From Nectonema munidae (taxonomy: Eukaryota > Nematomorpha > Nectonematoida > Nectonematidae), in NCBI GenBank assembly GCA_030549495.1, contig JAUIRK010001060.1, positions 403,501 through 467,500 of the forward strand: 64,000 bases of DNA, read 5' to 3'. This document shows, piece by piece, positions 1 through 64,000 of the stretch. The notes below the pieces were generated by a model. It was not told the DNA's origin and did no database searches. It saw nothing but the letters and a program-made list of their open reading frames with translations. Each line of letters starts with the position of its first letter. Within the stretch, counting starts at the first letter, position 1. The translations under genes and the position numbers were made by a program.

Positions 1-1067
1 CAATTCTATTTTCTCTTTTTATAATTTTATTTTCTCCTTTTCCAATTCTATATTGTCCTTTTTCAATTCTATTTTATTCTTTTGCAATTCAATTTTGTTC
101 TTTTTCAATTCTATTTTATTCTTTTCCAATTCCATTTTGTCATTTTGATATTCTATTTTCTCTTTATTCAATTCTATTTTCTCTTTTTTCAATTCTATTT
201 TCTCTTTTTTCAATTTTATTTTGTGCTTTTCCAATTCTATTTTATTCCTTTTCAATTCCATTTTGTCCTTTTTCAATTCTATTTTCTCTTTTTATAATTT
301 TATTTTCTCCTTTTCCAATTCTATTTTGTCCTTTTTCAATTCTATTTTATACTTTTGCAATTCAATTTTGTTCTTTTTGAATTCTATTTTATTCTTTTTT
401 AATTCCATTTTGTCATTTGAAATTCTATTTTCTTTTTTTTCAATTCTATTTTCTCTTTTTTCAATTTTATTTTGTGCTTTTCCAATTCTATTTTAAACTT
501 TTTCAATTCCATTTTGTCCTTTTTCAATTCTATTTTCTCTTTTTATAATTTTATTTTCTCCTTTTCCAATTCTATTTTCTCCTTTTCCAATTCTATTTTA
601 TTCTTTTGCAATTCTATTTTATTCTTTTGCAATTCAATTTTGTTCTTTTTCAATTCTATTTTATTCTTTTCCAATTCCATTTTGTCATTTTGATATTCTA
701 TTTTCTCTTTATTCAATTCTATTTTCTCTTTTTTCAATTCTATTTTCTCTTTTTTCAATTTTATTTTGTGCTTTTCCAATTCTATTTTATTACTTTTCAA
801 TTCCATTTTGTCCTTTTTCAATTCTATTTTATTCTTTTGCAATTCAATTTTGTTCTTTTTCAATTCTATTTTATTCTTTTGCAATTCAATTTTGTTCTTT
901 TTGAATTCTATTTTATTCTTTTTTCAATTCCATTTTGTCATTTGAAATTCTATTTTCTTTTTTTTCAATTCTATTTTCTCTTTTTTCAATTTTATTTTGT
1001 GCTTTTCCAATTCTATTTTATTCCTTTTCAATTCCATTTTGTCCTTTTTCAATTCTATTTTCTCTTT

Positions 1068-1823
1068 TTATAATTTTATTTTCTCCTTTTCCAATTCTAT
1101 TTTGTCCTTTTTCAATTCTATTTTATTCTTTTGCAATTCAATTTTGTTCTTTTTAAATTCTATTTTATTCTTTTTCAATTCCATTTTGTCCTTTTGATAT
1201 TCTATTTTCTCTTTATTCAATTCTTTTTTCTCTTTTTTCAATTTTATTTTGTGCTTTTCCAATTCTATTTTATTCCTTTTCAATTCCATTTTGTCCTTTT
1301 TCAATTCTATTTTCTCTTTTTATAATTTTATTTTCTCCTTTTCCAATTCTATTTTGTCCTTTTTCAATTCTATTTTATTCTTTTGCAATTCAATTTTGTT
1401 CTTTTTCAATTCTATTTTATTCTTTTTCAATTCCATTTTGTCCTTTTGATATTCTATTTTCTCTTTTTTCAATTCTTTTTTCTCTTTTTTCAATTTTATT
1501 TTGTGCTTTTCCAATTCTATTTTATTCCTTTTCAATTCCATTTTGTCCTTTTTCAATTCTATTTTCTCTTTTTATAATTTTATTTTCTCCTTTTCCAATT
1601 CTATTTTGTCCTTTTTCAATTCTATTTTATTCTTTTGCAATTCAATTTTGTCTTTTTGCAATTCTATTTTATTCCTTTTCAATTCCATTTTGTCCTTTTG
1701 ATATTCTATTTTCTCTTTTTTCAATTCTATTTTCTCTTTTTTCAATTTTATTTTGTGCTTTTCCAATTCTATTTTATTCCTTTTCAATTCCATTTTGTCC
1801 TTTTTCAATTCTATTTTCTCTTT
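1068..1823. repeat. Clear example of the 252-bp (12-unit) higher-order repeat
   Basis: Three consecutive copies of the same ordered set of twelve 21-bp variants are spaced exactly 252 bp apart. For example, the variant containing GTGCTTTTCC recurs at about 999, 1251, 1503 and 1755. The order is: GTGC unit, ATTCC unit, CCATTTTGTCC unit, CTCTTTTTA unit, TAATTTTATTTTCTCC unit, GTCC unit, ATTCTTTTG unit, CAATTCAATTTTG unit, ATTC unit, CCATTTTGTCC unit, ATATTC unit, CTC unit. Read on the minus strand each copy gives an open frame of 78 codons, bounded by the TAA made where the CTCTTTTTA unit meets the TAATTTT unit. The same 12-unit order recurs with local gains and losses of units to about 35.5 kb, for example at 17.64-17.89 kb and 25.43-25.68 kb. 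Confidence 0.9.
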
Positions 1824-1889
1824 TTATAATTTTATTTTCTCCTTTTCCAATTCTATTTTGTCCTTTTTCAATTCTATTTTATTCTTTTG

Positions 1890-4800
1890 CAATTCAATTG
1901 TGTCCTTTTCCAATTCTATTTTATTCTTTTGCAATTCTATTTTGTGCTTTTCCAATTCTATTTTATTCTTTTGCAATTCTATTTTGTCCATTTGAAATTC
2001 TATTTTCTCTTTTTTCAATTCTATTTTCTCCTTTTACAATTCTATTTCATTTTCTCTGTTTTCAATTCTATTTTCTCTGTTTTTTTCACTTTTTTCATTT
2101 CTATTTTGTCTTTTTCCAATTCTATTTTATTCTTTTGCAATTCTATTTTGTTCTTTTTCAATTCTATTTTATTCTTTTCCAATTCCATTTTGTCCTTTTG
2201 ATATTCTATTTTCTCTTTTTTCAATTCTATTTTCTCTTTTTTCAATTTTATTTTGTGCTTTTCCAATTCTATTTTATTCTTTTGCAATTCAATTTTGTCC
2301 TTTTGCAATTCTATTTTCTCTTTTTATAATTTTATTTTCTCCTTTTCCAATTCAATTTTGTCCTTTTTCAATTTTATTTTATTCTTTTTCAATTACATTT
2401 TGTCCTTTTGATATTCTATTTTCTCTTTTTTCAATTCTATTTTCTCTTTTTTCAATTTTATTTTGTGCTTTTCCAATTCTATTTTATTCCTTTTCAATTC
2501 CATTTTGTCCTTTTTCAATTCTATTTTCTCTTTTTATAATTTTATTTTCTCCTTTTCCAATTCTATTTTGTCCTTTTTCAATTCTATTTTATTCTTTTGC
2601 AATTCAATTTTGTTCTTTTTCAATTCTTATTTAATTCTTTTCCAATTCCATTTTGTCCTTTTGATATTCTATTTTCTCTTTTTTCAATTCTATTTTCTCT
2701 TTTTTCAATTTTATTTTGTCCTTTTCCAATTCAATTTTGTCCTTTTTCAATTCTATTTTATTCTTTTGCAATTCAATTTTGTTCTTTTTCAATTCTATTT
2801 TATTCTTTTTCAATTCCATTTTGTCCTTTTGATATTCTATTTTCTCTTTTTATAATTTTATTTTCTTCTTTTCCAATTCTATTTTGTCCTTTTTCAATTC
2901 TATTTTATTCTTTTGCCAATTCAATTTTGTCCTTTTTCAATTTTATTTTATTCTTTTTAAATTACATTTTGTCCTTTTGATATTCTATTTTCTCTTTTTT
3001 CAATTTTATTTTCTCTTTTTTCAATTTTATTTTGTGCTTTTCCAATTCTATTTTATTCTTTTGCAATTCAATTTTGTCCTTTTGCAATTCTATTTTCTCT
3101 TTTTATAATTTTATTTTCTCTTTTCCAATTCAATTTTGTCCTTTTTCAATTTTATTTTATTCTTTTTCAATTACATTTTGTCCTTTTGATATTCTATTTT
3201 CTCTTTTTCAATTCTATTTTCTCTTTTTTCAATTTTATTTTGTGCTTTTCCAATTCTATTTTATTCCTTTTCAATTCCATTTTGTCCTTTTTCAATTCTA
3301 TTTTCTCTTTTTTTTTTTATTTTCTCCTTTTTCAATTCTATTTTGTCCTTTTTCAATTCTATTTTATTCTTTTGCAATTCAATTTTGTTCTTTTTCAATT
3401 CTATTTTATTCTTTTTCAATTCCATTTTGTCATTTTGAAATTCTATTTTCTTTTTTTTCAATTCTATTTTCTCTTTTTTCAATTTTATTTTGTGCTTTTC
3501 CAATTCTATTTTATTCCTTTTCAATTCCATTTTGTCCTTTTTCAATTCTATTTTCTCTTTTTATAATTTTATTTTCTCCTTTACCAATTCTATTTTGTCC
3601 TTTTTCAATTCTATTTTATTCTTTTGCAATTCAATTTTTTTCTTTTTCAATTCTATTTTATTCTTTTCCAATTCCATTTTGTCCTTTTGATATTCTATTT
3701 TCTCTTTTTTCAATTCTATTTTCTCTTTTTTCAATTTTATTTTGTGCTTTTCCAATTCTATTTTATTCCTTTTCAATTCCATTTTGTCCTTTTTCAATTC
3801 TATTTTATTCTTTTGCAATTCTATTTTGTCTTTTTATAATTCTATTTTATTACTTTGCAATTCTATTTTGTTCTTTTCCAATTCTATTTTATTCTTTTGC
3901 AATTCTATTTTGTGCTTTTCCAATTCTATTTTATTCTTTTGCAATTCTATTTTGTCCATTTGAAATTCTATTTTCTCTTTTTTCAATTCTATTTTCTCCT
4001 TTTACAATTCTATTTCATTTTCTCTGTTTTCAATTCTATTTTCTCTGTTTTTTTCACTTTTTTCATTTCTATTTTGTCTTTTTCCAATTCTATTTTATTC
4101 TTTTGCAATTCTATTTTGTTCTTTTTCAATTCTATTTTATTCTTTTCCAATTCCATTTTGTCCTTTTGATATTCTATTTTCTCTTTTTTCAATTCTATTT
4201 TCTCTTTTTTCAATTTTATTTTGTGCTTTTCCAATTCTATTTTATTCTTTTGCAATTCAATTTTGTCCTTTTGCAATTCTATTTTCTCTTTTTATAATTT
4301 TATTTTCTCCTTTTCCAATTCAATTTTGTCCTTTTTCAATTTTATTTTATTCTTTTTCAATTACATTTTGTCCTTTTGATATTCTATTTTCTCTTTTTCA
4401 ATTCTATTTTCTCTTTTTTCAATTTTATTTTGTGCTTTTCCAATTCTATTTTATTCCTTTTCAATTCCATTTTGTCCTTTTTCAATTCTATTTTCTCTTT
4501 TTATAATTTTATTTTCTCCTTTTCCAATTCTATTTTGTCCTTTTTCAATTCTATTTTATTCTTTTGCAATTCAATTTTGTTCTTTTTCAATTCTTATTTT
4601 ATTCTTTTCCAATTCCATTTTGTCCTTTTGATATTCTATTTTCTCTTTTTTCAATTCTATTTTCTCTTTTTTCAATTTTATTTTGTCCTTTTCCAATTCA
4701 AATTTGTCCTTTTTCAATTCCATTTTGTCCTTTTTCAATTCTATTTTCTCTTTTTATAATTTTATTTTCTCCTTTTCCAATTCTATTTTGTCCTTTTTCA

Positions 4801-7200
4801 ATTCTAATTTCTCCTTTTCTAATTCAATTTTGTCCTTTTTCAATTTTATTTTATTCTTTTTAAATTACATTTTGTCCTTTTGATATTCTATTTTCTCTTT
4901 TTCAATTCTATTTTCTCCTTTTTCAATTTTATTTTGTGCTTTTCCAATTCTATTTTATTCCTTTTCAATTCCATTTTGTCCTTTTTCAATTCTATTTTCT
5001 CTTTTTTCAATTTTATTTTGTGCTATTCCAATTCTATTTTATTCCTTTTCAATTCCATTTTGTCCTTTTGATATTCTATTTTCTCTTTTTCAATTCTATT
5101 TTCTCTTTTTTCAATTCAATTTTGTCCTTTTGCAATTCAATTTTGTCCTTTTTCAATTCAATTTTGTCCTTTTGCAATTCAATTTTGTCCTTTTTCAATT
5201 CTATTTTATTCTTTTGCAATTCAATTTTGTTCTTTTTCAATTCTATTTTATTCTTTTTCAATTCCATTTTGTCCTTTTGATATTCTATTTTCTCTTTTTT
5301 CAATTTTATTTTGTCCTTTTTCAATTCTATTTTCTCTTTTTATAATTTTATTTTCTCCTTTTCCAATTCTAATTTGTCCTTTTTCAATTCTATTTTATTC
5401 TTTTGCAATTCAATTTTGTTCTTTTTCAATTCTATTTTATTCTTTTTCAATTCCATTTTGTCCTTTTGAAATTCTATTTTCTTTTTTTCAATTCTATTTT
5501 CTCTTTTTTCAATTTTATTTTGTGCTTTTCCAATTCTATTTTATTCCTTTTCAATTCCATTTTGTCCTTTTTCAATTCTATTTTCTCTTTTTATAATTTT
5601 ATTTTCTCCTTTTCCAATTCTATTTTGTCCTTTTTCAATTCTATTTTATTCTTTTGCAATTCAATTTTGTTTTTTTTCAATTCTATTTTATTCTTTTCCA
5701 ATTCCATTTTGTCCTTTTGATATTCTATTTTCTCTTTTTTCAATTCTATTTTCTCTCTTTTTTCAATTTTATTTTGTGCTTTTCCAATTCTATTTTATTC
5801 CTTTTCAATTCCATTTTGTCCTTTTTCAATTCTATTTTATTCTTTTGCAATTCTATTTTGTCTTTTTATAATTCTATTTTATTCCTTTGCAATTCTATTT
5901 TGTTCTTTTTCAATTCTATTTTATTCTTTTGCAATTCTATTTTGTGCTTTTCCAATTCTATTTTATTCTTTTGCAATTCTATTTTGTCCATTTGAAATTC
6001 TATTTTCTCTTTTTTCAATTCTATTTTCTCCTTTTACAATTCTATTTCATTTTCTCTGTTTTCAATTCTATTTTCTCTGTTTTTTTCACTTTTTTCATTT
6101 CTATTTTGTCTTTTTCCAATTCTATTTTATTCTTTTGCAATTCTATTTTGTTCTTTTTCAATTCTATTTTATTCTTTTCCAATTCCATTTTGTCCTTTTG
6201 ATATTCTATTTTCTCTTTTTTCAATTCTATTTTCTCTTTTTTCAATTTTATTTTGTGCTTTTCCAATTCTATTTTATTCTTTTGCAATTCAATTTTGTCC
6301 TTTTGCAATTCTATTTTCTCTTTTTATAATTTTATTTTCTCCTTTTCCAATTCAATTTTGTCCTTTTTCAATTTTATTTTATTCTTTTTCAATTACATTT
6401 TGTCCTTTTGATATTCTATTTTCTCTTTTTCAATTCTATTTTCTCTTTTTTCAATTTTATTTTGTGCTTTTCCAATTCTATTTTATTCCTTTTCAATTCC
6501 ATTTTGTCCTTTTTCAATTCTATTTTCTCTTTTTATAATTTTATTTTCTCCTTTTCCAATTCTATTTTGTCCTTTTTCAATTCTATTTTATTCTTTTGCA
6601 ATTCAATTTTGTTCTTTTTCAATTCTTATTTAATTCTTTTCCAATTCCATTTTGTCCTTTTGATATTCTATTTTCTCTTTTTTCAATTCTATTTTCTCTT
6701 TTTTCAATTTTATTTTGTCCTTTTCCAATTCAAATTTGTCCTTTTTCAATTCCATTTTGTCCTTTTTCAATTCTATTTTCTCTTTTTATAATTTTATTTT
6801 CTCCTTTTCCAATTCTATTTTGTCCTTTTTCAATTCTAATTTCTCCTTTTCCAATTCAATTTTGTCCTTTTTCAATTTTATTTTATTCTTTTTAAATTAC
6901 ATTTTGTCCTTTTGATATTCTATTTTCTCTTTTTCAATTCTATTTTCTTTTTTTTCAATTTTATTTTGTGCTTTTCCAATTCTATTTTATTCCTTTTCAA
7001 TTCCATTTTGTCCTTTTTCAATTCTATTTTCTCTTTTTTCAATTTTATTTTGTGCTTTTCCAATTCTATTTTATTCCTTTTCAATTCCATTTTGTCCTTT
7101 TGATATTCTATTTTCTCTTTTTCAATTCTATTTTCTCTTTTTTCAATTCAATTTTGTCCTTTTGCAATTCAATTTTGTCCTTTTTCAATTCAATTTTGTC
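1890..7200. repeat. Three copies of a ~2-kb composite block
   Basis: A distinctive off-pattern segment (CTCTGTTTTC, then CTCTGTTTTTTTCAC, then TTTTTTCATTTC) occurs at 2051-2110, 4019-4078 and 6051-6110, giving offsets of 1,968 and 2,032 bp. Sequence on both sides recurs with the same offset. The second and third copies are alike from about 3.74 to 5.2 kb and 5.77 to 7.2 kb, including odd single-unit variants such as CAATTCAAATTTG and CAATTCTAATTTC. This is a second level of repeat organisation above the 252-bp unit. The 64-bp difference in spacing is about three 21-bp units, so it fits whole-unit gain or loss. Confidence 0.8.
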
Positions 7201-8084
7201 CTTTTGCAATTCAATTTTGTCCTTTTCAATTCTATTTTATACTTTTGCAATTCAATTTTATTCTTTTTCAATTCTTTTTTATTCTTTTCCAATTCCATTT
7301 TGTCCTTTTGATATTCTATTTTCTCTTTTTTCAATTTTATTTTGTGCTTTTTCAATTCTATTTTCTCTTTTTATAATTTTATTTTCTCTTTTTCCAATTT
7401 TATTTTGTGCTTTTCCAATTCTATTTTATTCTTTTGCAATTCAATTTTGTCCTTTTGCAATTCTATTTTGTCCTTTTTCAATTTAATTTTGTCTCTTTGC
7501 AATTCAATTTTGTCCTTTTTCAATTCTATTTTATTCTTTTGCAATTCAATTTTGTCTTTTTCAATTCTTTTTTATTCTTTTCCAATTCCATTTTGTCCTT
7601 TTGCTATTCTATTTTCTCTTTTTTTCAATTTTATTTTGTCCTTTTTCAATTCTATTTTCTCTTTTTCAATTTTATTTTCTCTTTTTTCAATTCTATTTTG
7701 TTCTTTTCCAATTCTATTTTATTCTTTTTCAATTCCATTTTGTCCTTTTGCAATTCTATTTTCTCTTTTTATAATTTTATTTTCTCCTTTTCCAATTCAA
7801 TTTTGTCCTTTTTCAATTTTATTTTATTCTTTTTCAATTACATTTTGTCCTTTTGATATTCTATTTTCTCTTTTTCAATTCTATTTTCTCTTTTTTCAAT
7901 TTTATTTTGTGCTTTTCCAATTCTATTTTATTCCTTTTCAATTCAATTTTGTCCTTTTTCAATTCTATTTTCTCTTTTTATAATTTTATTTTCTCCTTTT
8001 CCAATTCTATTTTGTCCTTTTTCAATTCTATTTTATTCTTTTGCAATTCAATTTTGTTCTTTTTGAATTCTATTTTATTCTTTT

Positions 8085-8900
8085 TTAATTCCATTTTGTC
8101 ATTTGAAATTCTATTTTCTTTTTTTTCAATTCTATTTTCTCTTTTTTCAATTTTATTTTGTGCTTTTTCAATTCTATTTTCTCTTTTTTCAATTCTATTT
8201 TCTCTTTTTTCAATTCTATTTTGTTCTTTTCCAATTCTATTTTATTCTTTTTCAATTCCATTTTGTCCTTTTGCAATTCTATTTTCTCTTTTTATAATTT
8301 TATTTTCTCCTTTTTCAATTCTATTTTATTCTTTTGCAATTCAATTATGTCCTTTTGATATTCTATTTTCTCTTATTCAATTCTATTTTCTCTTTTTTCA
8401 ATTCAATTTTGTCCTTTTGATATTCTATTTTCTCTTATTCAATTCTATTTTCTCTTTTTTCAATTCAATTTTGTCCTTTTGCAATTCAATTTTGTCCCTT
8501 TGATATTCTATTTTCTCTTTTTCAATTCTATTTTCTCTTTTTTCAATTCAATTTTGTCCTTTTTCAATTCTATTTTCTCTTTTTATAATTTTATTTTCTC
8601 CTTTTCCAATTCTATTTTGTCCTTTTTCAATTCTATTTTATTCTTTTGCAATTCAATTTTGTTCTTTTTGAATTCTATTTTATTCTTTTTTAATTCCATT
8701 TTGTCATTTGAAATTCTATTTTCTTTTTTTTCAATTCTATTTTCTCTTTTTTCAATTTTATTTTGTGCTTTTTCAATTCTATTTTCTCTTTTTTCAATTC
8801 TATTTTCTCTTTTTTCAATTCTATTTTGTTCTTTTTCAATTCTATTTTATTCTTTTTCAATTCCATTTTGTCCTTTTGCAATTCTATTTTCTCTTTTTAT
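8085..8900. repeat. 605-bp offset local duplication
   Basis: The segment beginning at the CATTTGAAATTC variant near 8,100 recurs near 8,705. It includes a run of three CTCTTTTTTCAATTC units followed by GTTCTTTTCC or GTTCTTTTTC. The same block appears again near 19.9 kb, and in altered form near 32.05 and 35.04 kb. It is one of several medium-scale copies made by unequal exchange inside the array. Confidence 0.65.
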
Positions 8901-23250: not shown

Positions 23251-26200
23251 TGTCATTTTTCAATTCTATTTTCTCCTTTTCCAATTCTATTTTGTCCTTT
23301 TTCAATTCTATTTTATTCTTTTGCAATTCAATTTTGTTCTTTTTCAATTCTATTTTATTCTTTTGCAATTCAATTTTGTTCTTTTTGAATTCTATTTTAT
23401 TCTTTTTCAATTCCATTTTGTCATTTGAAATTCTATTTTCTTTTTTTTCAATTCTATTTTCTCTTTTTTCAATTTTATTTTGTGCTTTTCCAATTCTATT
23501 TTATTCCTTTTCAATTCCATTTTGTCTTTTTGCAATTCAATTTTCTCTTTTTATAATTTTATTTTCTCCTTTTCCAATTCTATTTTGTCCTTTTTCAATT
23601 CTATTTTATTCTTTTGCAATTCAATTTTGTCCTTTTTCAATTCTATTTTCTCTTTTTATAATTTTATTTTCTCCTTTTCCAATTCAATTTTGTCTTTTTC
23701 AATTTTATTTTATTCTTTTTCAATTACATTTTGTCCTTTTGATATTCTATTTTCTCTTTTTTCAATTCTATTTTCTCTTTTTTTCAATTTTATTTTGTGC
23801 TTTTCCAATTCTATTTTATTCCTTTTCAATTCCATTTTGTCCTTTTTCAATTCTATTTTCTCTTTTTATAATTTTATTTTCTCCTTTTCCAATTCTATTT
23901 TGTCCTTTTTCAATTCTATTTTATTCTTTTGCAATTCAATTTTGTTCTTTTTCAATTCTATTTTATTCTTTTTCAATTCCATTTTGTCCTTTTGATATTC
24001 TATTTTCTCTTTATTCAATTCTATTTTCTCTTTTTTTCAATTTTATTTTGTGCTTTTCCAATTCTATTTTATTCCTTTTCAATTCCATTTTGTCCTTTTT
24101 CAATTCTATTTTCTCTTTTTATAATTTTATTTTCTCCTTTTTCAATTCTATTTTATTCTTTTGCAATTCAATTTTGTCTTTTTGCAATTCTATTTTGTCT
24201 TTTTGCAATTCTATTTTATTCTTTTTCAATTCCATTTTGTCCTTTTTCAATTCCATTTTGTCCTTTTGATATTCTATTTTCTCTTTTTTCAATTCTATTT
24301 TCTCTTTTTTCAATTTTATTTTGTGCTTTTCCAATTCTATTTTATTCCTTTTCAATTCCATTTTGTCCTTTTTCAATTCTATTTTCTCTTTTTATAATTT
24401 TATTTTCTCCTTTTCCAATTCTATTTTGTCCTTTTTCAATTCTATTTTATTCTTTTGCAATTCAATTTTGTTCTTTTTCAATTCTATTTTATTCTTTTTT
24501 CAATTCCATTTTGTCCTTTTGAAATTCTATTTTCTTTTTTTTCAATTCTATTTTCTCTTTTTTTCAATTTTATTTTGTGCTTTTCCAATTCTATTTTATT
24601 CCTTTTCAATTCCATTTTGTCCTTTTTCAATTCTATTTTATCTTTTTATAATTTTATTTTCTCCTTTTCCAATTCTATTTTGTCCTTTTTCAATTCTATT
24701 TTATTCTTTTGCAATTCAATTTTGTTCTTTTTCAATTCTATTTTATTCTTTTTCAATTCCATTTTGTCCATTTGAAATTCTATTTTCTCTTTTTTTCAAT
24801 TCTATTTTCTCTTTTTTTCAATTTTATTTTGTGCTTTTCCAATTCTATTTTATTCCTTTTCAATTCCATTTTGTCCTTTTTCAATTCTATTTTTCTCTTT
24901 TTATAATTTTATTTTCTCCTTTTCCAATTCTATTTTGTCCTTTTTCAATTCTATTTTATTCTTTTGCAATTCAATTTTGTTCTTTTTGCAATTCTATTTT
25001 ATTCTTTTTCAATTCCATTTTGTCCTTTTGATATTCTATTTTTCTCTTTTTCAATTCTATTTTCTCTTTTTTCAATTTTATTTTGTGCTTTTCCAATTCT
25101 ATTTTATTCCTTTTCAATTCCATTTTGTCCTTTTTCAATTCTATTTTCTCTTTTTTTAATTTTATTTTCTCCTTTTCCAATTCTATTTTTTCTTTTCCAA
25201 TTCATTCCTTTTATCTTTTTCTCTTTTTCAATTCTATTTTCTTTTTTTCAATTCATTTTCTCCTTTTCCAATTCTATTTTGTCCTTTTTCAATTCTATTT
25301 TATTCTTTTGCAATTCAATTTTGTTCTTTTTCAATTCTATTTTATTCTTTTTCAATTCCATTTTGTCATTTGAAATTCTATTTTCTTTTTTTTCAATTCT
25401 ATTTTCTCTTTTTTCAATTTTATTTTGTGCTTTTCCAATTCTATTTTATTCCTTTTCAATTCCATTTTGTCCTTTTTCAATTCTATTTTCTCTTTTTATA
25501 ATTTTATTTTCTCCTTTTCCAATTCTATTTTGTCCTTTTTCAATTCTATTTTATTCTTTTGCAATTCAATTTTGTTCTTTTTCAATTCTATTTTATTCTT
25601 TTTCAATTCCATTTTGTCCTTTTGATATTCTATTTTCTCTTTTTTCAATTCTATTTTCTCTTTTTTCAATTTTATTTTGTGCTTTTCCAATTCTATTTTA
25701 TTCCTTTTCAATTCCATTTTGTCCTTTTTCAATTCTATTTTCTCTTTTTATAATTTTATTTTCTCCTTTTCCAATTCTATTTTGTCTTTTTCAATTCTAT
25801 TTTTTTCTTTTGCAATTCTATTTTGTCCTTTTTCAATTCTATTTTATTCTTTTGCAATTCAATTTTGTTCTTTTTCAATTCTATTTTATTCTTTTGCAAT
25901 TCATTTTGTCCTTTTTCAATTCTATTTTTCTTTTTCAATTCCATTTTCATTTGAAATTCTATTTTCTTTTTTTTCAATTCTATTTTCTCTTTTTTCAATT
26001 TTATTTTGTGCTTTTCCAATTCTATTTTATTCCTTTTCAATTCCATTTTGTCCTTTTTCAATTCTATTTTCTCTTTTTATAATTTTATTTTCTCCTTTTC
26101 CAATTTCTATTTTGTCCTTTTTCAATTCTATTTTATTCTTTTGCAATTCAATTTTGTCTTTTTCAATTCTATTTTATTCTTTTTCAATTCCATTTTGTCC

Positions 26201-26694
26201 TTTTGATATTCTATTTTCTCTTTTTTCAATTCTATTTTCTCTTTTTTCAATTTTATTTTGTGCTTTTCCAATTCTATTTTATTCCTTTTCAATTCCATTT
26301 TGTCCTTTTTCAATTCTATTTTCTCTTTTTATAATTTTATTTTCTCCTTTTCCAATTCAATTTTGTCTTTTTTCAATTCTATTTTGTCCTTTTGATATTC
26401 TATTTTCTCTTTTTCAATTCTATTTTATCTTTTTTCAATTTTATTTTGTGCTTTTCCAATTCTATTTTATTCCTTTTCAATTCCATTTTGTCCTTTTTCA
26501 ATTCTATTTTCTCTTTTTATAATTTTATTTTCTCCTTTTCCAATTCTATTTTGTTCTTTTTCAATTCTATTTTATTCTTTTGCAATTCAATTTTGTTCTT
26601 TTTCAATTCTATTTTATTCTTTTTCAATTCCATTTTGTCCTTTTGAAATTCTATTTTCTTTTTTTTCAATTCTATTTTCTCTTTTTTCAATTTT

Positions 26695-29040
26695 ATTTTG
26701 TGCTTTTCTAATTCTATTTTGTCCTTTTTCAATTCTATTTTATTCTTTTGCAATTCAATTTTGTTCTTTTTCAATTCTATTTTATTCTTTTCCAATTCCA
26801 TTTTGTCATTTTGTTATTCTATTTTCTCTTTATTCAATTCTATTTTCTCTTTTTTCAATTCTATTTTCTCTTTCTTCAATTTTATTTTGTGCTTTTTCAA
26901 TTCTATTTTATTCCTTTTCAATTACATTTTGTCCTTTTTCAATTCTATTTTGTTCTTTTTCAATTCTATTTTATTCTTTTGCAATTCAATTTTGTTCTTT
27001 TTCAATTCTATTTTATTCTTTTTTAATTCCATTTTGTCATTTGAAATTCTATTTTCTTTTTTTTCAATTCTATTTTCTCTTTTTTCAATTTTATTTTGTG
27101 CTTTTCCAATTCTATTTTATTCCTTTTCAATTCCATTTTGTCTTTTTGCAATTCAATTTTCTCTTTTTATAATTTTATTTTCTCCTTTTCCAATTCTATT
27201 TTGTCCTTTTTCAATTCTATTTTATTCTTTTGCAATTCAATTTTATCCTTTTTCAATTCTATTTTCTCTTTTTATAATTTTATTTTCTCCTTTTCCAATT
27301 CAATTTTGTTCTTTTTCAATTCTATTTTATTCTTTTTCAATTCCATTTTGCCCTTTTGATATTCTATTTTATCTTTTTTCAATTTTATTTTGTCTTTTTT
27401 TCAATTCTATTTTGTGCTTTTCCAATTCTATTTTATTCCTTTTCAATTCCATTTTGTCCTTTTTCAATTCTATTTTCTCTTTTTATAATTTTATTTTCTC
27501 CTTTTCCAATTCTATTTTGTCCTTTTTCAATTCTATTTTATTCTTTTGCAATTCAATTTTGTTCTTTTTTAATTCTATTTTATTCATTTGAAATTCTATT
27601 TTCTTTTTTTTCAATTCTATTTTCTCTTTTTTCAATTTTATTTTGTGCTTTTCTAATTCTATTTTGTCCTTTTTCAATTCTATTTTATTCTTTTGCAATT
27701 CAATTTTGTTCTTTTTCAATTCTATTTTATTCTTTTCCAATTCCATTTTGTCATTTTGATATTCTATTTTCTCTTTATTCAATTCTATTTTCTCTTTTTT
27801 CAATTCTATTTTCTCTTTCTTCAATTTTATTTTGTGCTTTTCCAGTTCTATTTTATTACTTTTCAATTCCATTTTGTCCTTTTTCAATTCTATTTTATTC
27901 TTTTTCAATTCTATTTTTCCTTTTCCAATTCAATTTTGTTCTTTTTCAATTCTATTTTATTCTTTTGCAATTCAATTTTGTTCTTTTTCAATTCTATTTT
28001 ATTCTTTTTCAATTCCATTTTGTCTTTTGAAATTCTATTTTCTTTTTTTCAATTCTATTTTTCTCTTTTTTCAATTTTATTTTGTGCTTTTCCAATTCTA
28101 TTTTATTCCTTTTCAATTCCATTTTGTCCTTTTTCAATTCTATTTTATCTTTTTATAATTTTATTTTCTCCTTTTCCAATTCTATTTTGTCCTTTTTCAA
28201 TTCTATTTTATTCTTTTGCAATTCAATTTTGTTCTTTTTCAATTCTATTTTATTCTTTTGCAATTCAATTTTGTTCTTTTTGAATTCTATTTTATTCTTT
28301 TTCAATTCCATTTTGTCATTTGAAATTCTATTTTCTTTTTTTTCAATTCTATTTTCTCTTTTTTCAATTTTATTTTGTGCTTTTCCAATTCTATTTTATT
28401 CCTTTTCAATTCCATTTTGTCCTTTTTCAATTCTATTTTATCTTTTTATAATTTTATTTTCTCCTTTTCCAATTCTATTTTGTTCTTTTTCAATTCTATT
28501 TTATTCTTTTGCAATTCAATTTTGTTCTTTTTCAATTCTATTTTATTCTTTTTTAATTCCATTTTGTCATTTGAAATTCTATTTTCTTTTTTTTCAATTC
28601 TATTTTCTCTTTTTTCAATTTTATTTTGTGCTTTTCCAATTCTATTTTATTCCTTTTCAATTCCATTTTGTCCTTTTTCAATTCAATTTTCTCTTTTTAT
28701 AATTTTATTTTCTCCTTTTCCAATTCTATTTTGTCCTTTTTCAATTCTATTTTATTCTTTTGCAATTCAATTTTTTCCTTTTTCAATTCTATTTTCTCTT
28801 TTTATAATTTTATTTTCTCCTTTTCCAATTCAATTTTGTCTTTTTTCAATTTTATTTTATTCTTTTTCAATTATATTTTGTCCTTTTGATATTCTATTTT
28901 CTCTTTTTTCAATTCTATTTTCTCTTTTTTCAATTTTATTTTGTGCTTTTCCAATTCTATTTTATTCCTTTTCAATTCCATTTTGTCCTTTTTCAATTCT
29001 ATTTTCTCTTTTTATAATTTTATTTTCTCCTTTTCCAATT
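26695..29040. repeat. ~5.8-kb offset duplicated block, copy B
   Basis: This is the partner of the block at 20,880-23,250 and carries the same succession of rare unit variants. Local differences, such as a block carrying ATTCATTTGAAATTC near 27,590, show later unit-level loss after the block duplication. Confidence 0.75.
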
Positions 29041-31299
29041 CTATTTTGTCCTTTTTCAATTCTATTTTATTCTTTTGCAATTCAATTTTGTTCTTTTTGA
29101 ATTCTATTTTATTCTTTTTCAATTCCATTTTGTCATTTGAAATTCTATTTTCTTTTTTTTCAATTCTATTTTCTCTTTTTTCAAATTTATTTTGTGCTTT
29201 TCCAATTCTATTTTATTCCTTTTCAATTCCATTTTGTCCTTTTTCAATTCTATTTTCTCTTTTTATAATTTTATTTTCTCCTTTTCCAATTCTATTTTGT
29301 CCTTTTTCAATTCTATTTTATTCTTTTGCAATTCAATTTTGTTCTTTTTCAATTCTATTTTATTCTTTTTCAATTCCATTTTGTCATTTGAAATTCTATT
29401 TTCTTTTTTTTCAATTCTATTTTCTCTTTTTTTCAATTTTATTTTGTGCTTTTCCAATTCTATTTTATTCCTTTTCAATTCCATTTTGTCCTTTTTCAAT
29501 TCTATTTTCTCTTTTTATAATTTTATTTTCTCCTTTTCCAATTCTATTTTGTCCTTTTTCAATTCTATTTTATTCTTTTGCAATTCAATTTTGTTCTTTT
29601 TCAATTCTATTTTATTCTTTTTCAATTCCATTTTGTCCATTTGAAATTCTATTTTCTTTTTTTCAATTCTATTTTCTCTTTTTTTCAATTTTATTTTGTG
29701 CTTTTCCAATTCTATTTTATTCCTTTTCAATTCCATTTTGTCCTTTTTCAATTCTATTTTCTCTTTTTATAATTTTATTTTCTCCTTTTCCAATTCTATT
29801 TTGTCCTTTTTCAATTCTATTTTATTCTTTTGCAATTCAATTTTGTCTTTTTGCAATTCTATTTTATTCTTTTTCAATTCCATTTTGTCCTTTTGATATT
29901 CTATTTTCTCTTTTTCAATTCTATTTTATCTTTTTTCAATTTTATTTTGTGCTTTTCCAATTCTATTTTATTCCTTTCCAATTCCATTTTCTCCTTTTTC
30001 AATTCTATTTTCTCTTTTTTAATTCATTTTCTCCTTTTCAATTCTATTTTGTGCTTTTTCAATTCTATTTTATTCTTTTGCAATTCAATTTTGTCCTTTT
30101 GAATTCTATTTTCTCTTTTTTTCAATTCTATTTTCCCCTTTTTTCAATTCAATTTTGTCCTTTTCCAATTCAATTTTGATTTTCCTTTTTCAATTCTATT
30201 TTATTCTTTTGCAATTCAATTTTGTTCTTTTTCAATTCTATTTTATTCTTTTTCAATTCCATTTTGTCCATTTGAAATTCTATTTTCTTTTTTTCAATTC
30301 TATTTTTTCTCTTTTTTCAATTTTATTTTGTGCTTTTCCAATTCTATTTTATTCCTTTTCAATTCCATTTTGTCCTTTTTCAATTCTATTTTATCTTTTT
30401 ATAATTTTATTTTCTCCTTTTCCAATTCTATTTTGTCCTTTTTCAATTCTATTTTATTCTTTTGCAATTCAATTTTGTTCTTTTTCAATTCTATTTTATT
30501 CTTTTTCAATTCCATTTTGTCATTTTGAAATTCTATTTTCTTTTTTTCAATTCTATTTTCTCTTTTTTCAATTTTATTTTGTGCTTTTCCAATTCTATTT
30601 TATTCCTTTTCAATTCCATTTTGTCCTTTTTCAATTCTATTTTCTCTTTTTATAATTTTATTTTCTCCTTTTCCAATTCTATTTTGTCATTTTTCAATTC
30701 TATTTTCTCCTTTTCCAATTCTATTTTGTCCTTTTTCAATTCTATTTTATTCTTTTGCAATTCAATTTTGTTCTTTTTCAATTCTATTTTATTCTTTTGC
30801 AATTCAATTTTGTTCTTTTTCAATTCTATTTTATTCTTTTTCAATTCCATTTTGTCATTTGAAATTCTATTTTCTTTTTTTTCAATTCTATTTTCTCTTT
30901 TTTCAATTTTATTTTGTGCTTTTCCAATTCTATTTTATTCCTTTTCAATTCCATTTTGTCCTTTTTCAATTCTATTTTCTCTTTTTATAATTTTATTTTC
31001 TCCTTTTCCAATTTCATTTTGTCCTTTTTCAATTCTATTTTATTCTTTTGCAATTCAATTTTGTCTTTTTGCAATTCTATTTTATTCTTTTTCAATTCCA
31101 TTTTGTCCTTTTGATATTCTATTTTCTCTTTTTTCAATTCTATTTTCTCTTTTTTCAATTTTATTTTGTGCTTTTCCAATTCTATTTTATTCCTTTTCAA
31201 TTCCATTTTGTCCTTTTTCAATTCTATTTTCTCTTTTTATAATTTTATTTTCTCCTTTTCCAATTCAATTTTGTCTTTTTTCAATTCTATTTTGTCCTT

Positions 31300-32330
31300 T
31301 TGATATTCTATTTTCTCTTTTTCAATTCTATTTTATCTTTTTTCAATTTTATTTTGTGCTTTTCCAATTCTATTTTATTCCTTTCCAATTCCATTTTCTC
31401 CTTTTTCAATTCTATTTTCTCTTTTTTCAATTTTATTTTGTGCTTTTCCAATTCTATTTTATTCTTTTGCAATTCAATTTTGTCCTTTTGATATTCTATT
31501 TTCTCTTTTTCAATTCTATTTTCTCTTTTTTCAATTCAATTTTGTCCTTTTCCAATTCAATTTTGTCCTTTTTCAATTCTATTTTATTCTTTTGCAATTC
31601 AATTTTGTTCTTTTTCAATTCTATTTTATTCTTTTCCAATTCCATTTTGTCCTTTTGATATTCTATTTTCTCTTTTTTCAATTTTATTTTGTGCTTTTTC
31701 AATTCTATTTTCTCATTTTTAATTTTATTTTCTCTTTTTCCAATTCAATTTTGTCCTTTTTCAATTTTATTTTATTCTTTTTTAATTACATTTTGTCCTT
31801 TTGATATTCTATTTTCTCTTTTCCAATTCTATTTTCTCTTTTTTCAATTTTATTTTGTGCTTTTCCAATCCTATTTTATTCCTTTTCAATTCCATTTTGT
31901 CCTTTTTCAATTCTATTTTCCCTTTTTATAATTTTATTTTCTCCTTTTCCAATTCTATTTTGTCCTTTTTCAATTCTATTTTATTCTTTTGCAATTCAAT
32001 TTTGTTCTTTTTGAATTCTATTTTATTCTTTTTTAATCCCATTTTGTCATTTGAAATTCTATTTTCTTTTTTTTCAATTCTATTTTCTCTTTTTTCAATT
32101 TTATTTTGTGCTTTTTCAATTCTATTTTCTCTTTTTTCAATTCTATTTTCACTTTTTTCAATTTTATTTTGTGCTTTTCCAATTCTATTTTATTCTTTTG
32201 CAATTCAATTTTGTCCTTTTGCAATTCTATTTTCTCTTTTTATAATTTTATTTTCTCCTTTTCCAATTCAATTTTGTCTTTTTTCAATTTTATTTTATTC
32301 TTTTTCAATTATATTTTGTCCTTTTGATAT
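31300..32330. repeat. 2,991-bp offset duplicated block, copy A
   Basis: About 1 kb here matches 34,291-35,320 at a constant offset of 2,991 bp, which is not a multiple of 252. Shared rare variants include CTCATTTTTAATTTT and TTTTCACTTTTTTC. Copy A has a few private changes, such as CCAATCC for CCAATTC and CCCTTTTTATAA for CTCTTTTTATAA. Confidence 0.75.
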
Positions 32331-34290
32331 TCTATTTTCTCTTTTTTCAATTCTATTTTCTCTTTTTTCAATTTTATTTTGTGCTTTTCCAATTTTATTT
32401 TATTCCTTTTCAATTCCATTTTGTCCTTTTTCAATTCTATTTTCTCTTTTTATAATTTTATTTTCTCCTTTTCCAATTCTATTTTGTCATTTTTCAATTC
32501 TATTTTCTCCTTTTCCAATTCTATTTTGTCCTTTTTCAATTCTATTTTATTCTTTTGCAATTCAATTTTGTTCTTTTTCAATTCTATTTTATTCTTTTGC
32601 AATTCAATTTTTCTCTTTTTTCAATTCTATTTTGTTCTTTTTCAATTCCATTTTGTCATTTGAAATTCTATTTTCTTTTTTTTCAATTCTATTTTCTCTT
32701 TTTTCAATTTTATTTTGTGCTTTTCCAATTCTATTTTATTCCTTTTCAATTCCATTTTGTCTTTTTGCAATTCAATTTTCTCTTTTTATAATTTTATTTT
32801 CTCCTTTTCCAATTCTATTTTGTCCTTTTTCAATTCTATTTTATTCTTTTGCAATTCAATTTTTTCCTTTTTCAATTCTATTTTCTCTTTTTATAATTTT
32901 ATTTTCTCCTTTTCCAATTCAATTTTGTCTTTTTTCAATTTTATTTTATTCTTTTTCAATTATATTTTGTCCTTTTGATATTCTATTTTCTCTTTTTTCA
33001 ATTCTATTTTCTCTTTTTTCAATTTTATTTTGTGCTTTTCCAATTCTATTTTATTCCTTTTCAATTCCATTTTGTCCTTTTTCAATTCTATTTTCTCTTT
33101 TTATAATTTTATTTTCTCCTTTTCCAATTCTATTTTGTCATTTTTCAATTCTATTTTCTCCTTTTCCAATTCAATTTTGTCCTTTTTCAATTCTATTTTA
33201 TTCTTTTTCAATTCCATTTTGTCCTTCTGATATTCTATTTTCTCTTTATTCAATTCTATTTTCTCTTTTTTCAATTTTATTTTGTGCTTTTCCAATTCTA
33301 TTTTATTCCTTTTCAATTCCATTTTGTCCTTTTTCAATTCTATTTTCTCTTTTTATAATTTTATTTTCTCCTTTTCCAATTCTATTTTGTCCTTTTTCAA
33401 TTCTATTTTATTCTTTTGCAATTCAATTTTGTTCTTTTTCAATTCTATTTTATTCTTTTTCAATTCCATTTTGTCATTTGAAATTCTATTTTCTTTTTTT
33501 TCAATTCTATTTTCTCTTTTTTCAATTTTATTTTGTGCTTTTCCAATTCTATTTTATTCCTTTTCAATTCCATTTTGTCCTTTTTCAATTCTATTTTCTC
33601 TTTTTATAATTTTATTTTCTCCTTTTCCAATTCTATTTTGTCCTTTTTCAATTCTATTTTATTCTTTTGCAATTCAATTTTGTTCTTTTTGAATTCTATT
33701 TTATTCTTTTTCAATTCCATTTTGTCATTTGAAATTCTATTTTCTTTTTTTCCATTCTATTTTCTTTTTTCAATTTTATTTTGTGCTTTTCCAATTCTAT
33801 TTTATTCCTTTTCAATTCAATTTTGTCCTTTTTCAATTCTATTTTCTTTTTTTCAATTATATTTTCTCTTTTTTCATTTCTATTTTGTTCTTTTCCAATT
33901 CTATTTTATTCTTTTGCAATTCAATTTTGTTCTTTTTGAATTCTATTTTATTCTTTTTCAATTCCATTTTGTCATTTTGATATTCTATTTTCTTTTTTTC
34001 AATTCTATTTTCTCTTTTTTCAATTTTATTTTGTGCTTTTCCAATTCTATTTTATTCCTTTTCAATTCCATTTTGTCTTTTTGCAATTCAATTTTCTCTT
34101 TTTATAATTTTATTTTCTCCTTTTCCAATTCTATTTTGTCCTTTTTCAATTCTATTTTATTCTTTTGCAATTCAATTTTTTCCTTTTTCAATTCTATTTT
34201 CTCTTTTTATAATTTTATTTTCTCCTTTTCCAATTCAATTTTGTCTTTTTTCAATTTTATTTTATTCTTTTTCAATTACATTTTGTCCTT

Positions 34291-35320
34291 TTGATATTCT
34301 ATTTTCTCTTTTTCAATTCTATTTTATCTTTTTTCAATTTTATTTTGTGCTTTTCCAATTCTATTTTATTCCTTTTCAATTCCATTTTGTCCTTTTTCAA
34401 TTCTATTTTCTCTTTTTTCAATTTTATTTTGTGCTTTTCCAATTCTATTTTATTCTTTTGCAATTCAATTTTGTCCTTTTGATATTCTATTTTCTCTTTT
34501 TCAATTCTATTTTCTCTTTTTTCAATTCAATTTTGTCCTTTTCCAATTCAATTTTGTCCTTTTTCAATTCTATTTTATTCTTTTGCAATTCAATTTTGTT
34601 CTTTTTCAATTCTATTTTATTCTTTTCCAATTCCATTTTGTCCTTTTGATATTCTATTTTCTCTTTTTTCAATTTTATTTTGTGCTTTTTCAATTCTATT
34701 TTCTCATTTTTAATTTTATTTTCTCTTTTTCCAATTCAATTTTGTCCTTTTTCAATTTTATTTTATTCTTTTTCAATTACATTTTGTCCTTTTGATATTC
34801 TATTTTCTCTTTTCCAATTCTATTTTCTCTTTTTTCAATTTTATTTTGTGCTTTTCCAATTCTATTTTATTCCTTTTCAATTCCATTTTGTCCTTTTTCA
34901 ATTCTATTTTCTCTTTTTATAATTTTATTTTCTCCTTTTCCAATTCTATTTTGTCCTTTTTCAATTCTATTTTATTCTTTTGCAATTCAATTTTGTTCTT
35001 TTTGAATTCTATTTTATTCTTTTTTAATTCCATTTTGTCATTTGAAATTCTATTTTCTTTTTTTTCAATTCTATTTTCTCTTTTTTCAATTTTATTTTGT
35101 GCTTTTTCAATTCTATTTTCTCTTTTTTCAATTCTATTTTCACTTTTTTCAATTTTATTTTGTGCTTTTCCAATTCTATTTTATTCTTTTGCAATTCAAT
35201 TTTGTCCTTTTGCAATTCTATTTTCTCTTTTTATAATTTTATTTTCTCCTTTTCCAATTCAATTTTGTCCTTTTTCAATTTTATTTTATTCTTTTTCAAT
35301 TACATTTTGTCCTTTTGATA
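34291..35320. repeat. 2,991-bp offset duplicated block, copy B
   Basis: Partner of 31,300-32,330. It lacks the private CCAATCC and CCCTTTTT changes of copy A and so looks closer to the ancestral form. It lies about 400 bp before the change of repeat family at the array edge. Confidence 0.75.
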
Positions 35321-35729
35321 TTCTATTTTCTCTTTTTCAATTCTATTTTCTCTTTTTTCAATTCAATTTTGTCCTTTTAAATTCAATTTTGTCCTTTTTC
35401 AATTCTATTTTATTCTTTTGCAATTCAATTTTGTTCTTTTTCAATTCTATTTTATTCTTTTCCAATTCCATTTTGTCCTTTTGATATTCTATTTTCTCTT
35501 TTTTCAATTTTATTTTGTGCTTTTTCAATTCTATTTTATTCTTTTTTAATTCCATTTTGTCATTTGAAATTCTATTTTCTTTTTTTTCAATTCTCTTTTC
35601 TTTTTTTTCAATTCATTTTGTTCTTTTGCAATTCTATTTTCTTTTTTTATAATTTTATTTTCTCCTTTTTCAATTTCATTTTATTCTTTTTCAATTCCAT
35701 TTTGTCCTTTTGAAATTCTAATTTCTCTT

Positions 35730-37404
35730 TTTTAAATTCTATTTTGTCCTTTTACAATTCTATTTCATTTTCTCTGTTTTCAATTCTATTTTCTCTTTTT
35801 TCAATTCTATTTTCTCTTTTTTCAATTCCATTTTGTCCTTTTACAATTCTATTTCATTTTCTCTGTTTTCAATTCTATTTTATTCTTTTTCAATTCTATT
35901 TTGTCCTTTTGAAATTCTATTTTCTCTTTTTTCAATTCTATTTTGTCCTTTTACAATTCTATTTCATTTTCTCTGTTTTCAATTCTATTTTCTCTGTTTT
36001 CAATTCTATTTTCTCTTTTTTCAATTCTATTTTTTCTTTTCCAATTCTATTTTGTCCTTTTACAATTCTATTTCATTTTCTCTGTTTTCAATACTGTTTT
36101 ATACTTTTTCAATTCCATTTTGTCCTTTTGAAATTCTATTTTCTCTTTTTACAATTCTATTTTATTCTTTTGCAATTCTATTTTGTCTTTTGGCAATTCT
36201 ATTTTGTCTTTTTATAATTCTATTTTCTCTTTTTTCAATTCTATTTTCTCTTTTTTCAATTCTATTTTGTCCTTTTACAATTCTATTTCATTTTCTCTGT
36301 TTTCAATTCTATTTTATTCTTTTTCAATTCCATTTTGTCCTTTTGAAATTCTATTTTCTCTTTTTTCAATTCTATTTTGTCCTTTTACAATTCTATTTCA
36401 TTTTCTCTGTTTTCAATTCTATTTTCTCTGTTTTCAATCTTATTTTCTCTTTTTTCAATTTTATTATCTCTTTTTTCAATTCTATTTTCTCATTTTCCAA
36501 TTCTAATTTGTCCTTTTTCAATTCTATTTTATTCTTTTGCAATTCAATTTTGTCATTTGAAATTCTATTTTCTCTTTTTCAATTCTATTTTGTCCTTTTA
36601 CATTTCTATTCCATTTTCTCTGTTTTTAATTCTATTTTCTCTGTTTTCAATTCTATTTTCTCTTTTTTCAATTTTATTTTCTCTTTTTTCAATTCTATTT
36701 TGTCCTTTTTCAATTCTATTTTATTCTTTTGCAATTCAATTTTGTCCTTTTGCAATTCTATTTTCTCTTTTTATAATTCTATTTTCTCTTTTTTCAATTC
36801 TATTCTGTCCTTTTACAATTCTATTTCATTTTCTCTGTTTTCAATTCTATTTTATTCTTTTTCAATTCCATTTTGTCCTTTTGAAATTCTATTTTCTCTT
36901 TTTTCAATTCTATTTTGTCCTTTTACAATTCTATTTCATTTTCTCTTTTTTCAATTCTATTTTATTGTTTTTCAATTCCATTTTGTACTTTTGAAATTCT
37001 ATTTTCTCTTTTTTCAATTCTTATTTGTCCTTTTACAATTCTATTTCATTTTCTCTCTTTTCAATTCTATTTTATTCTTTTTCAATTCCATTTTGTCCTT
37101 TTGAAATTCTATTTTTTCTTTTTTCAATTCTATTTTGTACTTTTACAATTCTATTTCATTTTCTCTGTTTTCAATTCTATTTTCTCTGTTTTCAATTCTA
37201 TTTTCTCTTTTTATAATTCTATTTTCTCCTTTTCCAATTCTATTTTCTCCTTTTTCAATTCTTTTTTATTCTTTTGCAATTCAATTTTGTCCTTTTGAAA
37301 TTCTATTTTCTATTTTTTCAATTCTATTTTGTCCTTTTACAATTCCATTTTGTCCTTTTGATATTCTATTTTCTCTTTTTCAATTCTATTTTCTCTTTTT
37401 TCCT
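35730..37404. repeat. Edge domain of the satellite with a ~110-bp period
   Basis: Here the 252-bp order is lost. A new period is marked by GTCCTTTTACAATTC followed by ATTTCATTTTCTCTGTTTTC. The marker occurs near 35,745, 35,838, 35,948, 36,056, 36,271, 36,381, 36,594, 36,810, 36,919, 37,028, 37,138 and 37,333, so spacings are mostly about 110 bp or about twice that. The period fits four 21-bp units plus one 26-bp unit carrying a 5-bp insertion (ATTTC ATTTT CTCTG). A related CTCTG-type segment also sits inside the main array at 2.05, 4.02 and 6.05 kb. Divergent repeat families are usual at satellite borders. Confidence 0.85.
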
Positions 37405-37686
37405 TCAATTACATGATGGTCGAGTTGGTTGAAAGAGATCTCCTATTATTGAGACTATTTGAATGAAGTCAATGAATTTGTACGCCATTTTGATATTCAA
37501 AGAAGGAATTCTAGTTAAAAGGGCAAAGAAGGTGTTTCAACTCCACATTTACACAATCAACTTTTTAGAAGTAAAGAAAACTATTTGAAAATTTGCGATG
37601 TAGTTGATAAATCTGAATAAAATTATTTTTATTCTATATAAAGAATGACTCTACCAAGCTTATCACAATTTAAGGCAGAAAATTGA
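37405..37686. other. Unique AT-rich sequence at the satellite border
   Basis: First non-repetitive DNA after the array. No intact gene is seen. The + strand has short open pieces that could be the decayed upstream part of the hAT transposase relic that follows, but I cannot align them with confidence. Confidence 0.5.
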
Positions 37687-37815
37687 GAAATGTCGCCTTC
37701 AATCTATTTTCATTTACAACAATGTCAATTAACATCAACAGCAGTTGAAAGACTTTTTTCCTTTATGAAAAATCTTTTATCGAAATATAGGAATTATTTT
37801 CCTACCAACATATAA
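37687..37815 (+). pseudogene. hAT transposase C-terminal (dimerisation) relic
   Basis: A 42-codon open stretch ends in TAA at 37,813. It contains LTSTAVERLFSFMKNLLSKYR, which I read as the conserved C-terminal motif of hAT-family transposases: a Ser/Thr-rich start, then ERLFS, a spacer and a basic residue. In intact hAT proteins this segment forms the dimerisation region at the end of the transposase. Here it is preceded in frame by a stop at 37,684 and lacks the catalytic core, so it is a fragment. No terminal inverted repeats were found around it. The assignment rests on a short motif only. Confidence 0.55.
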
Positions 37816-46660: not shown

Positions 46661-47073
46661 TTTTTACTTTCTAGTAAAAAAGATAAATAAGCAAGCAGTC
46701 AGACAACTTAGTTCTTTGCATACTTTCTTCCTGATGAATGCCTCTTGAAAACCACCATAACGAAAGATGTGGGGAATCATATAGGGTCTGAATTGCTCGG
46801 TGCCATCCTTCAAGCTTGTTCGTGGTTCTTGGTAAACAATCACTCGACCTTTGTTCAAGACTCCAAATTATTGTTGAAAATAAAGGCTGCTTTCTCCTTC
46901 CTCCTGTTCTTTCTTCAAAATGACAGTATCATTCTTCCAACGCTTGCTCAATTTGAAGAGCTTCAAGGGAAACCAGCAATTCTTCAAATGCTTTAGTTAT
47001 TTCATCTGGGGGTAGGAATGCTAATTGCGCAAGCAATTAACAATAAAGTCGAAAGTTTGCATCATTTACATAA

Positions 47074-62443: not shown

Positions 62444-64000
<1,557 letters not shown>

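What the first reader, a model, noticed from the sequence alone, without database searches (positions are those of the whole stretch)
1..37404. A 37-kb satellite with four nested levels of repetition
A 21-bp unit, a 252-bp 12-unit repeat, and composite blocks offset by about 2.0, 3.0 and 5.8 kb are all visible by eye. Offsets that are not multiples of 252, and copies differing by whole 21-bp units, suggest unequal exchange or replication slippage at several scales. Such nested organisation in a very short-unit, T/C-strand satellite resembles centromeric higher-order repeats but with a unit far shorter than a nucleosome.
Basis: seen in the sequence. Interest (0 to 1): 0.75.

Follow-up and report, generated by a model that had tools for sequence, protein, structure and literature searches.

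The report
Transposon-end repeat grown into satellite

Summary
The repetition is real. It runs from left of the window (C748:398393) to window 37403: 42.5 kb, about 2,030 head-to-tail units, 1,796 of them exactly 21 bp, one orientation. A 12-unit order (about 252 bp) is real but loose. The 2.0, 3.0 and 5.8 kb offsets are among eleven block offsets between 2.0 and 11.8 kb: single duplications, not further regular levels. The new result is the origin. The 21-bp unit belongs to the terminal inverted repeats of a dispersed MITE/foldback-like element, 0-5 units per arm in nine ordinary copies; its end plus first unit matches 766 places genome-wide, control 3. Five further loci hold 7-57 units. The array shares an exact 36-mer with three other places, and its right edge holds the element's inner-junction 10-mer, though out of phase and with no second arm. 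Units at both edges are diverse, the centre homogeneous, as unequal exchange predicts. The array's 34-mer occurs at one place in a 212-Mb assembly, 3.6 kb from EF-hand exons, so a centromere is unlikely. Closest known case: Tetris of Drosophila virilis.

The parts
1..37403 (+). 21-bp tandem array, in-window part (1,788 units start inside the window); continues 5.1 kb to the left (C748:398393-403500)
   Evidence: TRF, wrap-around alignment
24290..25051 (+). three successive near-canonical 12-unit repeats (A-C-G-H-E-D-I-B-F-J-K-x), the first two 253 and 254 bp
   Evidence: unit encoding
3879..7878 (+). block pair at offset 2,032 bp; 721 bp exact; 96.5% identity over the compared 1,968 bp
21985..29039 (+). 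block pair at offset 5,795 bp; 99.3% identity over the compared 1,260 bp
31114..35364 (+). block pair at offset 2,991 bp; 98.6% identity over the compared 1,260 bp
37399..37408 (+). TTTCCTTCAA at the array's right edge, the 10-mer that marks the inner end of the repeats in the element's arm
   Evidence: window letters; element copies; 3 occurrences in 239,642 flank positions, both strands, two of them (by eye) in the element copy at C748:392708-393156
37424..38253 (+). diverged dispersed sequence next to the array, read by eye as remains of a hAT-type transposase end
   Evidence: genome copies at 64-88% identity; the hAT reading is by eye, no family search was run on it
61767..61822 (-). two or three stray units in the opposite orientation, probably a remnant of another copy of the element
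   Evidence: 79% match to the C337 arm; letters

Best explanation
The array is the overgrown arm of a MITE/foldback-like DNA transposon. Ordinary copies of the element are about 430-550 bp. Each reads: end (TATA)CCATTTTTAGTTC, 0-5 units of CAATTCTATTTTGTCYTTTTG, CCTTCAAC plus a T run, an AT-rich centre, and the mirror image. Shown: the element, its dispersal, its variable unit number, larger intermediate arrays, and that the long array is built of the same unit. Inferred: at this locus one arm grew by slippage, then by unequal exchange or break-induced copying once long enough. This spread a 12-unit set, and later larger blocks at offsets of 2-12 kb, through the array. The rest of the element was lost, or replaced by the adjoining hAT-like sequence. 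A non-LTR retrotransposon later split off about five units at the left edge. No protein is made from it and no host function is indicated.
For: Same unit: array units differ from the element's unit by 3.47 of 21 bases on average; 500 shuffled units at their best rotation give a mean of 8.9, minimum 6.1. An exact 36-mer of two units is found in the array (C748:398836) and at C157, C230 and C591 (these three were not read); 547 places match with up to 3 mismatches, a few of them in the array, control 0. Element: the end plus first unit matches 766 places, control 3; one copy as query gives 158 matches, both arms counting, with 40 of 503 candidates scored; the inverted-repeat layout was read in 10 distinct copies plus C729. 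Unit number over the 14 loci scanned (16 or more of 21 bases; same-copy L044 left out): 0-5 per arm in nine, larger in five: 57 (C337), 22 (C182), 14 (C265), 8 (C729), 7-8 (C601). The five were chosen because one search found arrays there, so the ratio is no census. C601 shows no second arm or clear element end and C182 one end only, by eye. Edge: TTTCCTTCAA lies at the array's right end. Exchange: one-off units are 32.5% (first 80) and 29.3% (last 82) of units at the edges, 6.0-9.1% between. Retrotransposon: 28 of 42 other matches end at the same 3' point, where the array resumes.
Against: The right-edge 10-mer is out of phase by about 10 bp with the junction in ordinary copies, and neither the centre nor the second arm follows it. 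The left edge (C748:396064, TATACC) scores 19 of 26 against the element's end, which 5 of 118 one-kb stretches of flank also reach, so it is weak. The array's commonest units are not the element's commonest unit, and the mean distance to that unit is flat along the array (3.28-3.64 per 100 units). Target duplication looks like TA but was judged by eye in a few copies. No autonomous partner was sought.
Confidence: 0.82

Rival explanations
1. The reverse order: a minisatellite existed first and the element's ancestor captured a few units, then spread them (as proposed by others for a Xenopus MITE).
For: A 2025 review (passages read) reports that route for the Tc1/mariner MITE miDNA4. The array's units vary more at several positions than the 155 element-type units collected, and the mean distance to the element's unit shows no trend along the array.
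Against: The element's own terminus (GTTCTATTTTGTCC) is a near-copy of the unit, in register, in most of the ten copies, by eye. The array's 34-mer has one place while the element's end has hundreds. Units within one change of the element's unit are commoner at the edges (7.5% of the first 80, 3.75% of the last 80) than in the middle (1.2%); the 80-unit cut was chosen after looking.
Confidence: 0.1
2. Assembly artefact: a short array inflated or shuffled by the assembler.
For: Reads were not available; the (TCA)519 run next to an exact 5,000-N stretch at the window's right end may mark a hard-to-assemble place on this contig.
Against: Copies differ by substitutions and indels; the longest exact repeat is 721 bp and the five block pairs aligned are 95.7-99.3% identical, which contig overlap would not give. 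Edge and centre differ in the way exchange predicts.
Confidence: 0.05
3. Centromeric (or other structural) higher-order satellite.
For: Layered repeats in one orientation; AT-rich; a weaker 10.46-bp component of the AA/TT pattern exists (power 25).
Against: One place only: 97 of 97 exact 34-mers on C748; of 157 matches to a second 34-mer every place listed is on C748, the rest were not listed. EF-hand exons 3.6 kb away, a transhydrogenase exon about 50 kb away. T tracts recur mainly every 7 bp (power 67 at 6.99), so helical phasing is partial at best.
Confidence: 0.03
4. A coding repeat: on the minus strand each unit reads as seven codons such as KKDKIEL, so the array would be a giant fibrous protein or its decayed gene.
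For: The seven most variable unit positions all fall on first or third codon positions of that frame. Rare new bases are about three times commoner per possible change at those sites (14 for 5 possible, against 28 for 33 at near-invariant sites, p 0.0007).
Against: Longest minus-strand stop-to-stop frame is 164 aa and each frame holds over 1,200 stops; 154 of 2,014 units carry A at position 21, a TAA in that frame, and 140 units are 20 bp. The unit belongs to a transposon arm. The skew of rare changes has a plainer cause: 30 of 67 singleton changes start from C, which is 17% of the bases, and the variable sites are mostly C.
Confidence: 0.01

Closest known systems
Tetris foldback transposon and its TIR-220 satellite, Drosophila virilis (PMC4079207; abstract and first part of the Discussion read)
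   Same: Non-autonomous inverted-repeat element; tandem repeats inside its arms that vary in number; the repeat shares a stretch with the outermost terminal part; some copies grow into long satellite-like arrays inside the element; unequal crossing-over proposed.
   Different: Unit 220 bp and up to 66 copies there, 21 bp and about 2,030 copies here. Tetris has 8-10 bp target duplications and its authors suggest Mutator; here the target looks like TA (by eye). Tetris amplification is placed in beta-heterochromatin; here one locus among genes and transposons. A 12-unit higher-order layer is present here; I saw none described in the parts of the Tetris paper read.
Xenopus MITEs miDNA4 (Tc1/mariner) and Xstir, as told in the review PMC12628747 (passages read)
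   Same: MITEs with an inner tandem array of variable length that can become a classical satellite; Tc1/mariner elements are known (recalled) for TA targets.
   Different: In miDNA4 the tandem repeat is thought to have been captured from outside; here it resembles the element's own end and lies in both arms.
Tandem-repeat-carrying MITEs of the clam Donax trunculus (title seen in the reference list of PMC12628747; paper not read)
   Same: By its title, tandem repeats within a MITE.
   Different: Not compared.

Membership tests
Satellite born from tandem repeats in a MITE/foldback arm (Tetris kind) | The repeat unit occurs inside the terminal inverted repeats of a dispersed element | tested here: met
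   10 distinct copies read plus C729; 766 terminus matches vs 3 control
Satellite born from tandem repeats in a MITE/foldback arm (Tetris kind) | Unit number varies between copies, with intermediates up to a long array | tested here: met
   0-5 per arm in nine of 14 scanned loci; 7-8, 8, 14, 22, 57 in the other five, which were chosen for having arrays
Satellite born from tandem repeats in a MITE/foldback arm (Tetris kind) | The long array is still bounded by element sequence | tested here: inconclusive
   Right-edge 10-mer present but out of phase and no second arm; left edge weak
Satellite born from tandem repeats in a MITE/foldback arm (Tetris kind) | Element is non-autonomous with target-site duplications | tested here: inconclusive
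   Copies of about 430-550 bp are too short for a transposase; TA or TATA beside several ends, by eye; autonomous partner not sought
Centromeric higher-order satellite | Array family present at each centromere, or at many loci | tested here: not met
   The array's 34-mer is on one contig only (as far as listed); unassembled copies cannot be excluded
Centromeric higher-order satellite | Binds the centromeric histone | not testable with these tools
   No chromatin data
Centromeric higher-order satellite | Regular multi-monomer higher-order period | tested here: inconclusive
   12-unit period real, lag-12 identity 15.7%, but only 5 strict copies; larger offsets irregular
Coiled-coil or fibrous protein gene | Open frame through the repeats | tested here: not met
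   Longest minus-strand frame 164 aa

The most novel reading that the evidence does not exclude
Each unit carries a near-copy of the element's terminal 14 bases, so if the transposase binds that motif (as described for Galileo and suggested for Tetris arm repeats), this locus is a cluster of about 2,000 binding sites that could soak up transposase, or attract cuts that drive its own growth.
Probability: 0.05. Interest if true: 0.6.

Novelty: new member of a known kind. Interest (0 to 1): 0.36.

Why it matters
It gives one genome in which the whole path can be read: many elements with 0-5 units per arm, a few loci with 7-57, and one locus with about 2,000 that has a 12-unit layer and kilobase duplications on top. 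That makes the step from transposon arm to layered satellite measurable, and suggests that higher-order layering can arise at a single locus near genes without a centromere.

Tried and rejected
Coding gene on the minus strand: rejected. Selection on the near-invariant unit positions: rare changes are unevenly spread, but C mutating more than T explains it well enough, so no claim. Hairpins as the cause of growth: neither strand of one 150-base piece folds (0 kcal/mol). Helical phasing of T tracts: main period 6.99 (power 67), with a weaker one at 10.46 (power 25). Pfam for the retrotransposon reading frame (L017:3977-4411) and for window 60859-61242: no family up to E 10; the reverse-transcriptase reading of the first rests on a FADD motif seen by eye plus genome copies with a common 3' end. 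Two of the seven Pfam queries (L023 end, L011) were badly cut and say nothing. Rfam over window 37000-64000: two matches, both far below the gathering score and at or beside the (TCA)n run. A four-unit 78-mer found 13 places on C337, C157 and C463 only (control 0), so other long arrays close to that consensus look few; diverged ones would be missed. Naming the organism: family searches for a mitochondrial marker did not complete. An 18-unit-spaced set on C106 could not be read. Literature: the listings and abstract starts named no such 21-bp element; only parts of two papers were read, so this says nothing about the rest.

Full report
Where it is. The window is C748:403501-467500 of an unnamed 211.6-Mb, 748-contig assembly, eukaryotic by its size and genes; the contig is 530 kb. 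The array starts left of the window at C748:398393 and ends at window 37403, 42.5 kb in all. It is 62% T, 17% C, 17% A and 3% G on the + strand, and 0 of 615 self-matches are inverted.

Anatomy. A wrap-around alignment splits it into 2,032 units, one of which is a 1-base end fragment; 1,796 are 21 bp. Eleven positions hardly vary; positions 1, 6, 7, 13, 15, 16 and 21 carry most differences. T tracts recur mainly every 7 bp, with a weaker 10.46-bp component. With the commonest unit forms as letters, a 12-letter order (A-C-G-H-E-D-I-B-F-J-K-M and variants in the last positions) recurs through much of the array; 47 copies of its first eight letters, 36 with F and a two-unit ending, 5 strict. Exact identity at lag 12 is 15.7%, at lags 11 and 13 1.4% and 2.6%. 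On top lie block duplications at 11 offsets from 1,968 to 11,802 bp, 95.7-99.3% identical in the five pairs aligned. Markov shuffles of the unit order show how much follows from local order alone: longest runs 4, 11-17 and 17-31 units for orders 0, 1 and 2, against 34 observed.

What it comes from. A search of the genome with translated units brought up other places with the same 21-bp unit. Flanks of some of them matched one another and a place 5.2 kb left of the array, where the sequence is an inverted repeat with units in both arms. That copy as a query gives 158 matches with only 40 of 503 candidates scored. Ten distinct copies were read and one more, C729: the ends read CCATTTTTAGTTCTATTTTGTC or close to it, in several copies next to TA or TATA; then the units; then CCTTCAAC and a T run; then an AT-rich centre; then the mirror image. 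The end with its first unit matches 766 places (393 and 373 on the two strands) with up to 3 mismatches, control 3. Two joined units match 547 places, control 0, a few of them inside this array, one exactly. Of the 14 loci scanned for unit number (L044, the same copy as L030, left out), nine have 0-5 units per arm and five have more: C337 57, C182 22, C265 14, C729 8, C601 7-8; the five were picked because one search found arrays there. In C601 no second arm or clear end was seen, and in C182 only one end.

How it most likely grew. The outer end of the element, GTTCTATTTTGTCC, is itself a near-copy of the unit, as the outer domain and TIR-220 share a stretch in Tetris. Shown: unit number varies between copies. 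Inferred: slippage adds or removes units while arms are short; once long, unequal exchange or break-induced copying dominates. The array carries the signature: one-off units make up 32.5% of the first 80 and 29.3% of the last 82 units but 6.0-9.1% in between. Near-element units are commoner at the edges, 7.5% of the first 80 and 3.75% of the last 80 against 1.2% in the middle, Fisher p 0.001 for the first 80 against all others, a cut chosen after looking; the mean distance to the element's unit is flat along the array, 3.28-3.64. The right edge holds TTTCCTTCAA, the element's inner-junction 10-mer, found 3 times in 239,642 flank positions; it is out of phase and the second arm is missing. The left edge resembles the element's end only weakly. 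There a non-LTR retrotransposon lies in the array: 28 of its 42 other genome matches end at the 3' point where the array resumes, and 5.4 units lie on its far side. So some of the array predates that insertion.

Against a centromere or gene. A 34-mer of the array occurs only here, 97 of 97; a second one with up to 1 mismatch gives 157 forward and 0 reverse, and every place listed is here, the remainder not being listed. EF-hand exons lie at window 40974-41261 and 44317-44562. Minus-strand heptads are broken by stops and 20-bp units. The long + strand frames are an effect of composition: units hold almost no stop codons on that strand.

Known and new. Satellites grown from repeats inside MITE or foldback arms are known: Tetris, up to 66 copies of 220 bp, and the Xenopus cases in a 2025 review. 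This is a further member with a much shorter unit, about thirty times as many copies and a 12-unit layer. The listings of five literature searches named none with this unit. The organism is unknown to me.

Noticed in passing
window 62444-64000: A perfect (TCA)519 run, 1,557 bp without one mismatch, ends exactly where 5,000 N begin (C748:467501-472500); whether the N are an assembly gap or withheld letters cannot be told.
   Followed up: partly
window 43744-43868: A GC-richer 125-bp dispersed repeat, probably a SINE: 39 other scored copies at 87-90% identity, 40 of 874 candidates scored; no Rfam family matched there.
   Followed up: partly
C106:158572-159328 (not fetched): Unit hits spaced exactly 378 bp (18 units) apart, three in a row, with another hit at 146505: perhaps a second array with its own higher-order period.
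   Followed up: no
C748:396190-398394 (L017:2690-4894): Non-LTR retrotransposon copy, relatives at 75-93% identity genome-wide, many lacking the 5' part, inserted in the left edge of the array.
   Followed up: partly
window 40974-44562: Two exons of an EF-hand gene, minus strand, by eye close to calmodulin but diverged.
   Followed up: no
L013:2647-3666; L024:458-991: Remains of transposases matching Pfam DDE_Tnp_1_7 (piggyBac type) and DDE_1 (pogo/Tigger type; type names recalled) on the same contig.
   Followed up: no
L016:5423-6640 (C748:388923-390140): An intact 406-aa open frame that looks by eye like a many-pass membrane protein; no Pfam family up to E 0.01.
   Followed up: no
window 46671-47511: Reading frames that look by eye like a MULE-type transposase; Pfam gave no match up to E 0.01.
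   Followed up: partly
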